Source: Prevotellaceae bacterium
GTDB lineage: Bacteria; Bacteroidota; Bacteroidia; Bacteroidales; Paludibacteraceae
NCBI GenBank assembly: GCA_031271465.1
Contig: JAISVR010000008.1
Span: forward strand, 1 to 64,000
Length of the DNA stretch: 64,000 nucleotides
Direction: 5' to 3'
The position numbers were made by a program, and so were the translations under genes. Of the stretch, positions 428 to 54,719 are shown in pieces. A model generated the notes under the pieces. It was not told the DNA's origin and made no database searches. It saw nothing but the letters and a program-made list of their open reading frames with translations. Numbering within the stretch: the stretch's first letter is position 1; each line of letters begins with the position of its first letter.

Positions 428-875
428 CGGAATTATCCCTTGGAGGTTTGAAAAGCAAACACTTTTGTCATTGCTAAACACCACCCGCCGGTTGCGGGCT
501 TGACTCGCAATTGCCCAACAACGAAATTGATTGCCCGATGTGCGATATTGCGTCAAGTGCGGTATGACGAATCCGTTTTTACAGGACTGAAACTCCCCGT
601 TGGTTGTTGATTGCTATTGCGAGGAACAAAGCAATCTGTTCCTGAGCAGAGATTGCTTCGTCGTGCCTTCTCGCAATGACGCGTTGGTTTTGCTTTTCTC
701 GTCATTAGCTCCCGTTGGTCACTGACCGCTGGTTGCGAGGTACGAAGCAATCTCGTACTATTTTTCTCTGGATTGCTTCGTCGTTCCTCCTCGCAATGAC
801 GGGCTGCACTTCGTTTCGGGAATTGTAAATTACTGACCGAAGGGAAGTAATAATGACGGACAAAGCTAAAAAAGT
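428..875. repeat. Cluster of MITE-like inverted-repeat modules
   Basis: This gene-free stretch opens with CGGAATTATCCC, the terminal sequence of the element best seen at 10786-10927. It contains the hairpin module with arms like GCGAGGAACGAAGCAATC and GATTGCTTCGTCGTTCC at about 618-675 and 735-805. A block at about 698-752 is repeated almost exactly at about 2277-2332. A module ending in GACCGAAGGGAAGTAATAATG at about 818-856 is shared with about 52215-52256. Short open frames here are by-products of the repeat and are not genes. Confidence 0.8.
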
Positions 876-2132: not shown

Positions 2133-2423
2133 CGGAATTATCCCGCTTAGGCTTGTTTCGTCATTATTACTTCCCTGCGGTCATGACCGTTGGTTGCGAG
2201 AAACGAAGCAATATTGTATTATTTTTTCTCTGGATTGCTTCGTCGTTCCTCCTCGCAATGACGGGTTGCACTTTGTTTCTCGTCATTAGCTCCCGTTGGT
2301 CACTGACCGCTGGTTGCGAGGTACGAAGCAATCTTAGAAGCGGCATCGTATTACAAGATTGCTTCATCGTAGTTCCTTACTGACGGATAGTGTTTACTTT
2401 AAAGCCTTACATGAATAATTCCG
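2133..2423. repeat. MITE-like element, long form
   Basis: It starts with CGGAATTATCCCGCTTAGG and ends with CATGAATAATTCCG, which match the two termini of the 142-bp element at 10786-10927. Inside are two hairpin modules with GATTGCTTCGTCGTTCCTCC arms. It is about 291 bp, roughly twice the simple form, so it looks like two elements joined or an internal duplication. No clean target-site duplication is visible at its ends. Confidence 0.75.
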
Positions 2424-10014: not shown

Positions 10015-10959
10015 TTATTGTATAATTATCCGCTTCGATTCTACTGTGTGTGCACTGAAATAACCCAGGCAACCGCCCGCTATGTTACTCTGCGGATTGG
10101 CAGGACTGGCTGCGTTGGAATCCATCATTTGCCTGAGAGAGTAAAAATAAGTATAGCTGCTTTTGTCGATGCAAAAGAAATAGAAGTCAACCGTATCGCC
10201 CACTATGGTTTCGCGACGAAGCATAATGTTGATAGGTCGTTCGATACCGTTATAGTCTTCATCGCTGCTCACTGAAATGCCTCTGCCGAAATCACCGTTA
10301 AGACTTGTTTTTGTTCGATAAAAATTTTCCCTTTCGGCAGGGTCGGTGTAGGTGCCTTTGAGCATGAAAAATGTTTCGCCAATAAGATGCTCGGTACTTT
10401 GATAAAGCGTGTCGAGCGGCACCGGATCGGGCATTTGACTTGTGGCAGTATAGGTTTTCCCGTCGTGTTGAACAGAGAGATAATACAAGTGTCCCGGTGT
10501 ACCCTTGATGTCGGTAGTGGTATACACGCCCGGTTCCGTCATGTTGAGCGATACGGGAGGCAGTTCGCCATCCGAAAGTTGCACCGTAGCATTGCTTATG
10601 CCTATAAATTTTCCGGTAGAAGTAAAAGGAGTAGTTTGCGATATGCGTACCACACAAGCAGAATCGGGTACATCAGTTATCACAGCTTCAATTACCAAGC
10701 GTGTTTCAGCCTCTTTCAAATCGGGGTCAATTACCTTTTCACACGAGAAAAGGGTAATTGCAACGAGGAAAAGTGGAAATATAAACGGAATTATCCCTTT
10801 GAGGCTTGCTTCGTTATTGCGAGGAACGAAGTAATCTTGGAGTAGCATCTTGTTGGAGATTGCTTCGTCGTTCCTTCTCGCAATGACGGATAGTATTTGC
10901 TTTGCAAGCCTCAAAGGGATAATTCCGAATATAAATATATGAGCATTTGATTTTCTCAT
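10015..10959 (-). CDS. DUF4249 lipoprotein with a mobile element inserted in the signal peptide
   Basis: The mature part matches DUF4249, a Bacteroidota family usually paired with a TonB receptor as here. Family marks are the Cys of the lipobox (LFSC) followed by EKVIDPD, and the C-terminal NIAGGCLGYFSAHTVESKR. A 142-bp inverted-repeat element plus an 8-bp duplicated target lies inside the signal-peptide region. Together they add exactly 50 codons. Removing them joins MRKSNAHIFIF to PLFLVAITLFSC, which is a normal lipoprotein signal peptide. The present 314-residue frame is open. An ATG inside the element at 10848 could give a shorter form with a 37-residue leader. Whether the protein is still exported is unknown. 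Confidence 0.85.
   Translation of the reverse strand: MRKSNAHIFIFGIIPLRLAKQILSVIARRNDEAISNKMLLQDYFVPRNNEASLKGIIPFIFPLFLVAITLFSCEKVIDPDLKEAETRLVIEAVITDVPDSACVVRISQTTPFTSTGKFIGISNATVQLSDGELPPVSLNMTEPGVYTTTDIKGTPGHLYYLSVQHDGKTYTATSQMPDPVPLDTLYQSTEHLIGETFFMLKGTYTDPAERENFYRTKTSLNGDFGRGISVSSDEDYNGIERPINIMLRRETIVGDTVDFYFFCIDKSSYTYFYSLRQMMDSNAASPANPQSNIAGGCLGYFSAHTVESKRIIIQ
10778..10935. mobile_element. MITE-like element with 8-bp target-site duplication
   Basis: The element itself is 10786-10927 (142 bp). Its two ends are a perfect 24-bp inverted repeat (10786-10809 and 10904-10927) beginning CGGAATTATCCC. It is bounded by the direct repeat AATATAAA at 10778-10785 and 10928-10935. The interior is a second imperfect hairpin with GCGAGGAACGAAG and GATTGCTTCGTCGTTCC arms. 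It has no gene of its own, so it must be moved by a transposase elsewhere. It is the cleanest copy of the family seen at 428, 2133, 32475 and 54157. Confidence 0.92.
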
Positions 10960-11073
10960 GCAATATCATTGTGGTTGCAATAAACCCGTTGTATTTCGGT
11001 TTTGGGTATTTAAATTCATGCTCGCAAAGGTAAAATATTTTATTGAAAGGGTTGATGCTTACGACAGATTTCG

Positions 11074-13371
11074 TTACTTGATTTTAAAATTCCAAGCCAC
11101 CGACGGCACCCACCTGAAAAGTGATGTTTGCACCGCTTGCGTACGGTTTGGGTCGTCCGGATTTTCTTCGAAGTTGATAGCATAGGCGTTCTCGTGCCCG
11201 TAGGCGTTATACAGTCCTATGGAGAGTTCGCTTTCGTAGTGCTTCCGTTGCTTGAGTTTGATGTTTACGCTCAGGTCGAGGCGATGATAGGCAGGCATGC
11301 GGTAGCCGTTGCGTTCGGTGTAGAGCCAAATACTCTTATCGTCGATGGAATATTTCCCGCTGGGGAATGTTACGGCATTACCTGTGCTGTATACCCAGGC
11401 AGCAGAAAGGTTTACCTTTCGGTTCAGGTCGTAGCTTGCCGCAATGGCAATGTCGTGTGTTTTGTCTTGTCGGGCAACATACCAGCGTCCGTTGTTGATG
11501 CCTTCAATTTTTTTCTCCGAGCGCGACAAAGTGTAGCTTATCCAGCCGGTGAGTTTACCTGTTTTTTTCTTTATGAAAAATTCTGCTCCATATGCTCGTC
11601 CCACGCCCGAAAGTAATTGCGAAGCCACCAGGTCGTTAAATACAATATCGGCACCGTCTCGGTAGTCAACCAAATTTGCCATCGTTTTATAGTATAATTC
11701 TACGCTGGTTTCGTACGCGTTTTTTTTCAGGTTGCGAAAATATCCGAGGCTGTATTGGTTAGCAGTAGAAGGACGCACATTATTGTCCGACGCAAACCAT
11801 TTGTCCATCGGACTGCTGCTGGTGGAGGTAGAAAGCAGGTGCAGGTACTGCGCGTTGCGCGTATAAGAAGCTTTGAGCGAATTGGCATCGTTTATCACAA
11901 ATACCGAATTCAAGCGCGGTTCAAGGGTAAAATAGTTTTTTACAATATCCGAGCGGTTGTAGTATGTAGTTTCGAGCAATTCGCCTTCAGCATTGAAGCG
12001 ATAGAAATCGTCTCCGCCGAGTACCGAAAAACCGCTGAGGCGTGCTCCCGCATTAATACTTAGCCGCTTTGATAGTTTCCATTCGTCGCTGATGAAAAGA
12101 GCGCTTTCTACCGAGCGCTGGTTTTGAAGTTTTCGGGTGATGATGCCCGAACCGGACACTTCGCCCGGGAGTATTTCGTGGTAAATAACATCCAAGCCAA
12201 AGCGCAACGCGTGTTTTTCGCCGGCATAATATTGAAATTCCTGTTTGAAATTGTAATCGGTAAGCACCGATTTTATCTCAAATTCCATGTCGCTGAAATT
12301 TACCAGTACTTCGTATTTGTAGTTGCTCACAATAAGCGATGTATTGGAAAATAGTTTACTCGAAAAAATATGGTTCCATCGCAGCGTTCCCGTGGCGTTT
12401 CCCCAATCAATTCCGGCAATATCTTTCAGTCCCAGTTTGTCGCGCCCGAAATAACCCGACACGAAGAGTGCATCGCGATTCGAAAACCGGTAGTTGGCTT
12501 TCAGGTTAAGGTCGTAGAAATAAAGTTTCGTGCCCCGATATTTGTCTGAAGCCATAAGGAATACATCGGCGTATGTGCGTCTTCCCGATACGAGGAAAGA
12601 ACTTTTCCCTCGCTTGATGGGAGCTTCGATGCTTAACTTGGACGAAATCAACCCAAGGCTACCGTTTAGTTCCATCTGTTCGTTGTTGCCTTCTTTCATG
12701 CGTATATCCATAGCAGACGATAGTCGCCCGCCGTATTGCGCCGGTTGTGTGCCTTTGTAGAGCGACAGGTCTTTGATGGCATCGGAATTGAAGGTGGAGA
12801 AAAAACCCATGAGGTGTGAGGCGTTGTATACGGTGGCTTCGTCGAGTAGAATAAGGTTTTGGTCGCCCGCGCCGCCTCGCACGAAGATAGACCCACTGCC
12901 GTCGCCGCTCGATTTTACTCCCGGTAGCAGTTGCACCGATTTGATTATGTCTTTCTCGCCAAACAGTACCGGTAACCGGTTTATTTCCTTGATGTCCATC
13001 CGTTGCACGCCGCTTTGAGAGTTCACCACATTGTCGTTGTTTTTAACGCTCGATACCACAAGCTCTTGCAATTGTTCCGCATGCGTTCGCAGGGCAATGT
13101 CGCGATGCAGGTTGGCGTCGAGGGTTATATGCAGTGTATCGCTCCGGTATCCGAAACTGTCGAAAATAATCTGGTGTTTGCCTTGCGGCAGCGAGATGGA
13201 GTAGAAGCCGTATTCGTTGCTTGTGGCTGTGGTGGTTTTGCCAACAACTTTTATCGTAGCTCCAATAAGCGTTTCGCCGTTTTCGGCATCGCGCACTGTG
13301 CCGCTCAACGAGAAAGCTGTTGCCGACAGAGGTAAAATGAACAGAGCTAATAGAATGAGAATTTTTTTCAT
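11074..13371 (-). CDS. TonB-dependent outer-membrane receptor with carboxypeptidase-regulatory-like N-terminal domain
   Basis: A signal peptide (MKKILILLALFILPLSATAF) leads into a CarboxypepD_reg-like beta domain (GTVRDAENGETLIGATI). A plug domain follows, with LLPGVKSSGDGSGSIFVRGG, and then a long 22-strand-type barrel ending in an aromatic-terminated strand. The 765 residues are typical. It should take up a substrate across the outer membrane with TonB energy; nothing here names the substrate. It is followed by its DUF4249 partner. The ATG at 13371 was chosen because the signal peptide begins there and a -7 promoter box lies just upstream. Confidence 0.92.
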   Translation of the reverse strand: MKKILILLALFILPLSATAFSLSGTVRDAENGETLIGATIKVVGKTTTATSNEYGFYSISLPQGKHQIIFDSFGYRSDTLHITLDANLHRDIALRTHAEQLQELVVSSVKNNDNVVNSQSGVQRMDIKEINRLPVLFGEKDIIKSVQLLPGVKSSGDGSGSIFVRGGAGDQNLILLDEATVYNASHLMGFFSTFNSDAIKDLSLYKGTQPAQYGGRLSSAMDIRMKEGNNEQMELNGSLGLISSKLSIEAPIKRGKSSFLVSGRRTYADVFLMASDKYRGTKLYFYDLNLKANYRFSNRDALFVSGYFGRDKLGLKDIAGIDWGNATGTLRWNHIFSSKLFSNTSLIVSNYKYEVLVNFSDMEFEIKSVLTDYNFKQEFQYYAGEKHALRFGLDVIYHEILPGEVSGSGIITRKLQNQRSVESALFISDEWKLSKRLSINAGARLSGFSVLGGDDFYRFNAEGELLETTYYNRSDIVKNYFTLEPRLNSVFVINDANSLKASYTRNAQYLHLLSTSTSSSPMDKWFASDNNVRPSTANQYSLGYFRNLKKNAYETSVELYYKTMANLVDYRDGADIVFNDLVASQLLSGVGRAYGAEFFIKKKTGKLTGWISYTLSRSEKKIEGINNGRWYVARQDKTHDIAIAASYDLNRKVNLSAAWVYSTGNAVTFPSGKYSIDDKSIWLYTERNGYRMPAYHRLDLSVNIKLKQRKHYESELSIGLYNAYGHENAYAINFEENPDDPNRTQAVQTSLFRWVPSVAWNFKIK

Positions 13372-13388
13372 TGAAAATAAAATCTCGG

Positions 13389-13396
13389 CAAAAGTA
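13389..13396 (-). promoter_or_regulatory. Putative -7 box for the TonB receptor operon
   Basis: On the minus strand the sequence is TACTTTTG (TAnnTTTG), 17 bp upstream of the ATG at 13371. No clear -33 box was found. Confidence 0.5.
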
Positions 13397-13432
13397 GTCA
13401 ATAAAAATCGGAATTATCTTAGACTGATAAAA

Positions 13433-32474: not shown

Positions 32475-32882
32475 CGGAATTATCTTTTTTGGGCGTATTC
32501 GTCATTGTGAGGAACGAAGCAATCTTGGAAGAGCATTTTATTGGAGATTGCTTCGTCGTTCCTCCTCGCAATGACGGTGCTTCGTTCCTCGCAATGACGG
32601 TGCTTCGTTCTTCGCAATGACGGTGATTGTTTGCTTTACAAGCCTAAAAGATATTATTTCGTTGATTTTTTAGTGTTATGTATACGATTGTTTTCGGTAT
32701 TATCTCTTTGTGGTTGGCTTCGTCATTGCGAGGAACGAAGCAATCTTGAAAGAACACTTTATTGGAGATTGCTTCGTCGTTCCTCCTCGCAATGACGGTG
32801 ATTCGTTCTCGCAATGACGGTGCTTCGTTCCTCGCAATGACGGATAGTGTTTGCTTGGCATGCCTAAAAAGGGATAATTCTG
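32475..32882 (+). mobile_element. Composite of two MITE-like elements (copy A)
   Basis: Two elements lie head to tail: 32475-32661 (CGGAATTATC... to ...TATTATTTCG) and 32695-32882 (CGGTATTATC... to ...GGGATAATTCTG). Between them is a 33-bp spacer, 32662-32694. Both contain GATTGCTTCGTCGTTCCTCC hairpin modules and extra short CGCAATGACGG repeats. The spacer and both flanking ends are found again in inverse orientation at 54157-54719. It lies upstream of ugd in a 1.2-kb gene-free region. Confidence 0.85.
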
Positions 32883-54156: not shown

Positions 54157-54719
54157 CAGATATTATCCCTTTTCAGGCATGCCAAGCAAACACTATCCGC
54201 CATTGCGAAGAGGAATCACCGTCATTGCGAGGAGGAACGACGAAGCAATCTCCAATAAAATGCTTTTCCAAGATTGCTTCGTTCCTCGCAATGACGAAGT
54301 CAACCTCAAAGAATAATTCCGAAAACAATCGTATACATAACACTAAAAAATCAACGAAATAATATCTTTTAGGCTTGTAAAACAAACAATCACCGTCATT
54401 GCGAAGAACAAATCACCGTCATTGCGAGGAGCGAATCACCGTCATTGCGAGGAACGAAGCAATCTTGGAATCTCGCATCAGATTGCTTCGTCGTTCCTCC
54501 TCGCAATGACGGCGTGCGTCGCGATTGCTTCGTCGTTCCTCCTCACAATGACGGTGTGTGTCGCGATTGCTTCGTCGTTCTTCTTCGCAATGACGGCATG
54601 ATGTTCGGTTTCCCGTCATTGCGAGGAACGAAGCAATCTCAACAACAACAATCGTATTCGAAGATTACTTCATCGATCCTCCTTGCAATGACGAAGCCAA
54701 CCGCAAAGAGATAGTTCCG
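54157..54719 (-). mobile_element. Composite of two MITE-like elements (copy B, inverted)
   Basis: Two elements, about 54157-54321 and 54355-54719, flank the spacer 54322-54354. That spacer is the exact reverse complement of the 33-bp spacer at 32662-32694. The end GCATGCCTGAAAAGGGATAA (minus strand) also matches copy A. The second element is longer because it holds additional CGCAATGACGG hairpin repeats, so this copy has expanded or copy A has shrunk. Its right end is 4 bp from the stop codon of the M23 peptidase gene at 54724. Peptide-like frames across it are repeat-derived. Confidence 0.87.

What the first reader, a model, noticed from the sequence alone, without database searches (positions are those of the whole stretch)
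10778..10935. Mobile inverted-repeat element inserted in frame inside a lipoprotein signal peptide
A 142-bp element with perfect 24-bp terminal inverted repeats is bordered by an 8-bp direct repeat (AATATAAA). Element plus one duplicated target is 150 bp, exactly 50 codons. Deleting it restores an ordinary lipoprotein signal peptide ending LFSC. The element has no stop codon in the host frame and supplies a new ATG at 10848. This is a direct view of recent transposition and of how such an element can rewrite, without breaking, the start of an exported protein.
Basis: seen in the sequence. Interest (0 to 1): 0.82.

Follow-up and report, generated by a model that had tools for sequence, protein, structure and literature searches.

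The report
In-frame MITE splitting a lipoprotein signal
A 142-base mobile DNA palindrome, one of dozens in this Bacteroidales genome, jumped into the first codons of a lipoprotein gene without breaking the reading frame; it is a clear example of something already known from Rickettsia and REP repeats.

Summary
A 142-bp element (10786-10927) with perfect 24-bp terminal inverted repeats (TIRs) is flanked by an 8-bp duplication (AATATAAA), in frame near codon 11 of a DUF4249 lipoprotein gene. It belongs to a family with about 56 TIR ends and at least 26 paired copies in this 2.3-Mb genome. Nine of 27 paired copies (one in another genome) carry perfect 8-bp duplications, against 0.45 expected. No copy was found in three congeners or other sampled genomes of the family. 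Nineteen DUF4249 homologues, fifteen with the same upstream TonB-receptor gene, lack the extension. Deleting element plus one duplicate gives 22 residues from Met to Cys, as in homologues (16-24). The element is composite: outer TIRs around a CGTC-type REP palindrome that occurs about 200 times in the genome. No transposase with these ends was found. A relative in Bacteroidales SIG150, with the same TIRs and an 8-bp duplication, is a 1146-bp cassette carrying a two-gene toxin/defence-like operon. Precedents are Rickettsia RPEs, QMITEs and intragenic CGTC REPs, so this is a new member of a known kind. Whether the long protein is made and exported is untested.

The parts
10778..10785 (.). target-site duplication, left copy (AATATAAA)
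   Evidence: sequence; 8-bp duplications at 8 other paired copies, including the SIG150 cassette
10786..10927 (.). MITE-like element, 142 bp
   Evidence: at least 26 paired copies in the same genome
10786..10809 (+). terminal inverted repeat, left, CGGAATTATCCCTTTGAGGCTTGC
   Evidence: 24/24 complementary to the right arm
10810..10836 (+). inner CGTC-REP-like palindrome, left half (TTCGTTATTGCGAGGAACGAAGTAATC)
   Evidence: the core CATTGCGAGGAACGAAGCAATC occurs 199 times at <=2 mismatches in the genome
10858..10889 (+). inner CGTC-REP-like palindrome, right half (GATTGCTTCGTCGTTCCTTCTCGCAATGACGG)
   Evidence: also matched in another Bacteroidales family and in cyanobacterial plasmids
10904..10927 (-). 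terminal inverted repeat, right
10928..10935 (.). target-site duplication, right copy (AATATAAA)
10015..10959 (-). DUF4249 lipoprotein gene, 314 aa as it stands, 264 aa without the insert; lipobox LFSC, Cys at residue 73 (23 without insert)
   Evidence: PF14054 E=1.8e-25 over nearly the whole profile
10846..10848 (-). in-frame ATG inside the element, near the apex of the RNA hairpin; possible alternative start
   Evidence: sequence; fold
11024..11032 (-). TACCTTTGC, resembles the Bacteroidetes -7 promoter element TAnnTTTG; would put the start codon and the element in the mRNA
   Evidence: sequence; inference from known consensus, not tested
11074..13401 (-). TonB-dependent receptor gene upstream, conserved neighbour of the DUF4249 gene
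   Evidence: Pfam; the same gene pair in 15 of 19 homologue loci

Best explanation
It is one copy of a non-autonomous TIR transposon (MITE) family of this Bacteroidales genome. Outer 24-bp TIRs are recognised by a transposase acting in trans (probably a DDE enzyme) and inserted with an 8-bp staggered cut into AT-rich DNA. The interior is a CGTC-type REP palindrome. This copy landed about codon 11 of a DUF4249 outer-membrane-type lipoprotein gene. Because 142 + 8 = 150 and the one open frame of the element happened to be the one hit, the ORF survived. The duplicated target (re-encoding FIF) and the TIR end (encoding GIIP) left the hydrophobic core IIPFIFPLFLVAITLF directly before the lipobox LFSC. 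The most likely product is therefore still an exported lipoprotein with an identical mature part, made either with a 72-residue leader from the old start or with a 35-residue leader from the ATG inside the element. Shown: the element family, the 8-bp duplication, the empty-site arithmetic, homologues without the extension, the strong RNA hairpin. Inferred: transposase type, translation start, export and lipidation.
For: Family in the genome. Perfect duplication of exactly 8 bp in 9 of 27 paired copies, none at 7, 9 or 10. Arms 24/24 and duplication 8/8 here, while the other full-length copies compared have arms 16-23/24. No copy in three congeners or the other sampled family genomes. In 18 of 19 homologues a Met lies 16-24 residues before the lipobox Cys and none carries this 50-aa insert; the TonB receptor lies upstream in 15. 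Empty form: 22 residues from Met to Cys. Best 12-residue hydropathy 2.71 with insert and 2.77 without. DUF4249 domain complete. Element RNA folds at -64.4 kcal/mol, z = -10.3.
Against: No transposase with these TIRs was found: IS1595, ISL3, IS66 and DDE_Tnp_1 models have no match in the genome. No close strain with an empty site was available. No proteomic or transcript data. A -64 kcal/mol hairpin 32 nt into the gene could reduce expression, so the gene may be on its way to loss. The nearest sister copy is 92% identical, so the donor is not among the sequenced copies or the insertion is not very young.
Confidence: 0.87

Rival explanations
1. The insertion effectively moved the gene start. Translation now begins only at the ATG inside the element (10848) or not efficiently at all; the upstream 37 codons are untranslated relic and the long fusion protein is an annotation effect.
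For: The internal ATG sits near the apex of the hairpin and would give a 35-residue leader, nearer to the 16-24 of homologues. A published survey notes that many REPs at the N-terminal ends of ORFs may not be translated because initiation lies downstream (PMC3733652).
Against: The old start with MRKS... is intact, lies outside the hairpin, and a Bacteroidetes-like -7 box lies about 65 bp upstream; no Shine-Dalgarno-like sequence precedes the internal ATG (sequence).
Confidence: 0.3
2. The gene is inactivated or becoming a pseudogene: the long leader or the hairpin abolishes export or expression and the frame is still open only because the insertion is young.
For: Long strongly folding insert; perfect arms and duplication suggest too little time for decay to show.
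Against: No stop or frameshift; complete DUF4249 domain; hydrophobic core and lipobox unchanged. Only one of six frames through the element is open and the insertion is in it, as expected if disruptive insertions were removed.
Confidence: 0.25
3. The 50 residues are an ancient family-specific extension or a chance palindrome.
For: None found.
Against: No homologue has it; dozens of copies elsewhere in the genome at unrelated sites.
Confidence: 0.01
4. It is a protein-coding selfish palindrome like Rickettsia RPEs, selected to keep an open frame so that it can live inside genes.
For: One frame is often open across copies, and 16 of 27 paired copies have (length + 8) divisible by three.
Against: Of 26 complete copies in the genome only this one lies clearly inside a conserved gene; shared ancestry explains similar lengths. 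About half of the copies have no frame open end to end.
Confidence: 0.06

Closest known systems
Rickettsia palindromic elements (RPE; Ogata et al. 2000, 2002, as reviewed in PMC10969869 and PMC3733652)
   Same: Palindromic element of about 100-150 bp inserted in frame in a protein gene; according to PMC3733652 RPEs end in the CGTC tag that the inner module here also carries.
   Different: RPEs are often inside genes; here one of 26 complete copies clearly is. Here outer TIRs and an exact 8-bp duplication are clear. The insert lies in a signal peptide that is removed from the mature protein, not in the folded protein.
CGTC-tagged REPs (PMC3733652)
   Same: Inner core CGTCATTGCGAGGAACGAAGCAATC; CGTC REPs are reported from Bacteroidetes. 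The same paper describes REP dimers nested within longer palindromes and REPs in frame inside genes.
   Different: Here the REP dimer is enclosed in TIRs that make an 8-bp duplication, so the whole composite moves like an IS.
QMITEs of Coxiella burnetii (PMC5896051)
   Same: MITE copies fused in frame to genes, supplying terminal codons.
   Different: Unrelated element; the case quoted there, enhC, is a C-terminal extension.
BrickBuilt MITEs of Porphyromonas gingivalis (PMC4596501)
   Same: Mosaic MITE family in Bacteroidales with a modular interior.
   Different: BrickBuilt is always intergenic, has 12-nt TIRs like IS5-family ISPg elements, and tandem 23-nt bricks.

Membership tests
MITE (non-autonomous TIR transposon) | terminal inverted repeats of 15-30 bp | tested here: met
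   24-bp TIR, 24/24
MITE (non-autonomous TIR transposon) | fixed-length target-site duplication | tested here: met
   exactly 8 bp, perfect in 9 of 27 paired copies
MITE (non-autonomous TIR transposon) | many dispersed copies, short, no transposase gene inside | tested here: met
   paired copies 66-365 bp
MITE (non-autonomous TIR transposon) | a matching autonomous transposase identified (helpful, not strictly required) | tested here: inconclusive
   four DDE models without match in this genome; other transposase families not tested
Rickettsia palindromic element | in-frame insertion in a gene with intact domain | tested here: met
   function of the product not tested
Rickettsia palindromic element | frequent residence inside genes with a conserved encoded peptide | tested here: not met
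   one clear case among 26 complete copies; about half have no frame open throughout
Rickettsia palindromic element | sequence homology to RPE families | not tested
   only the CGTC tag is known to be shared, according to PMC3733652
CGTC-tagged REP (inner module) | short palindrome with CGTC at one end, high copy number | tested here: met
   CGTCATTGCGAGG...; 199 copies of the core
DUF4249 lipoprotein | PF14054 domain behind a lipobox, next to a TonB receptor | tested here: met

The most novel reading that the evidence does not exclude
These TIRs define a trans-mobilised transposon family, without its own transposase, that ranges from 46-bp palindromes through REP-filled MITEs to a 1.1-kb cassette that ferries a toxin- or defence-like operon between Bacteroidales; in this genome it also rewrites a leader peptide.
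Probability: 0.35. Interest if true: 0.55.

Novelty: new member of a known kind. Interest (0 to 1): 0.36.

Why it matters
It is a clean, easily tested case of how a MITE can add 50 codons to a gene and yet leave the mature protein unchanged, because signal peptides are cleaved off and the target duplication rebuilds the hydrophobic core. Signal peptides would then be a tolerant landing place for in-frame palindromes. The composite structure also shows a REP palindrome carried inside a transposon that makes a defined target duplication, one possible way in which CGTC REPs, which have no known dedicated transposase, could spread.

Tried and rejected
Transposase of the IS1595, ISL3, IS66 or DDE_Tnp_1 type in the genome: no match. 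Same TIR in viral contigs: none. Element in phages: none; in plasmids only 30-39 bp of the inner REP matched, in cyanobacteria. A single TIR-like match in G516 has no partner. Known RNA family at the site: nothing above its threshold. Preference for terminator T-tracts: 3 of 27 copies (2 with strong hairpins) against 3.7% of control sites, suggestive only. Paper search for the REP core as a string: none. The idea that the element keeps an open frame by selection was rejected as weak.

Full report
Observation. The sequence at 10778-10935 reads AATATAAA, a 142-bp element, AATATAAA. The 24 terminal bases of each end are perfect reverse complements. The element lies in a minus-strand ORF of 314 aa (10959-10015). 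142 + 8 = 150, so the frame is kept. Of the six frames through the element only one has no stop, and it is the frame of the gene. Joining the flanks gives a 264-aa protein starting MRKSNAHIFIFPLFLVAITLFSCEK.

It is a mobile family. The genome (2.32 Mb, 46 contigs, 99.8% complete) has 82 matches to the element plus flanks. It has 39 sites within three mismatches of the 24-bp TIR against none for the reversed control, and 28 + 28 ends with a slightly relaxed pattern. I fetched stretches around these sites and found 26 elements with two facing TIRs in this genome. Including the SIG150 element below, 9 of 27 have perfectly duplicated 8-bp flanks and 12 have at least 7 of 8 identical. Shuffled pairings give 0.45 and 1.3, and none of 20,000 shuffles reached the observed values. 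No other length from 4 to 12 gives more than one perfect duplication. For two copies (L101, L128) I moved one boundary by one base because of an indel in or near the TIR. Targets are AT-rich. The copy in the window has the most perfect ends of those compared (24/24 arms, 8/8 duplication; other full-length copies 16-23/24), but its nearest sister is only 92% identical.

Host gene. The protein is a DUF4249 lipoprotein (PF14054, E=1.8e-25, profile positions 2-269 of 269) behind a TonB-dependent receptor. Homologues in the same genus, family and order have the same receptor gene upstream in 15 of 19 loci. In 18 of the 19 homologues a methionine lies 16-24 residues before the conserved cysteine; the remaining one (L043) has no Met in the stretch. 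None has the 50-residue insert. The restored form has 22 residues from Met to Cys. The insert separates the first residues (MRKSNAHIFIF) from the core. The duplicated target encodes FIF again and the TIR end encodes GIIP, so the core before the lipobox cysteine is IIPFIFPLFLVAITLF. Its hydropathy is nearly the same as in the empty form. This is why the gene could survive; that the protein is still exported is inferred.

Anatomy of the element. The inner part is a palindrome with the core CATTGCGAGGAACGAAGCAATC, present about 200 times in this genome, many copies outside these TIRs. Parts of it are also matched in another Bacteroidales family and in cyanobacterial plasmids. Some copies have TIRs with almost nothing between: the C28 copy is a 46-bp pure palindrome and the C16 copy about 60 bp. 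Thus a REP-like palindrome sits inside a TIR transposon. This corresponds to the CGTC REPs of PMC3733652, which reports them from Bacteroidetes. [quoted passage not shown] As RNA on the coding strand the element folds into one hairpin of -64.4 kcal/mol, z = -10.3, starting 32 nt after the start codon begins. The internal ATG (10848) lies near its apex.

Origin of the transposition activity. Four DDE transposase models (IS1595, ISL3, DDE_Tnp_1, IS66) have no match in the genome. The TIR is absent from three congeners and the other genomes of the family that were sampled, and nearly absent from the order. A scan of 85,000 species genomes found a single exact match, in Bacteroidales MAG SIG150. 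There the TIR occurs twice, facing, as the ends of a 1146-bp stretch with the duplication CAAATTTA, once in that genome. Between them is no transposase but two ORFs of 68 and 193 aa. The larger has relatives on 66 plasmid records, mostly of proteobacteria, again with a small ORF in front in the one record examined. It resembles weakly the PADLOC defence model PD-T4-9_A (E=2.7e-6). So these TIRs appear to move cargo too, presumably in trans.

Known or new. In-frame palindromic insertions in bacterial genes are established: RPEs (reviewed in PMC10969869), CGTC and GTAG REPs (PMC3733652), QMITEs (PMC5896051). N-terminal REP insertions are also described, with the caution that translation may start downstream. 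The present case adds an exact duplication, homologues without the insert, and a reason for tolerance in a signal peptide. It is a new family but not a new kind of thing.

Limits. No conspecific strain was available, so the empty site itself was not seen. Expression, start site and export are untested. The set of copies was collected by similarity to this copy and its TIR, so more degenerate copies are missed.

Noticed in passing
L131:907-2052 (SUYM01000013.1, Bacteroidales SIG150): 1146-bp cassette with the same TIRs and an 8-bp duplication (CAAATTTA) carrying a 68-aa and a 193-aa ORF (toxin-antitoxin or defence-like pair, weak PD-T4-9_A match, relatives on plasmids) but no transposase.
   Followed up: partly
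L007:1507-1645 (G000 C45:33171-33309): A copy abuts the 3' end of ribD and appears to supply its last codons and stop (...GKYSELSR*).
   Followed up: partly
window 428-451; L104:1530; L128:1519; L005:1500: Several copies begin directly after the T-run of an intrinsic terminator, suggesting a preference for T-tracts; enrichment not convincing in the set tested.
   Followed up: partly
window 2133-2423, 32475-32661, 54355-54719: Other members of the same family in the window; the last has a perfect duplication AAAATCAA and several nested REP units.
   Followed up: partly
G000 C28:9906-9952; C16:11048: Minimal copies of 46 to about 60 bp consisting of two nearly abutting TIRs.
   Followed up: no
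whole genome, core CATTGCGAGGAACGAAGCAATC: About 200 copies of the CGTC-REP core, many in groups outside the TIR elements.
   Followed up: no
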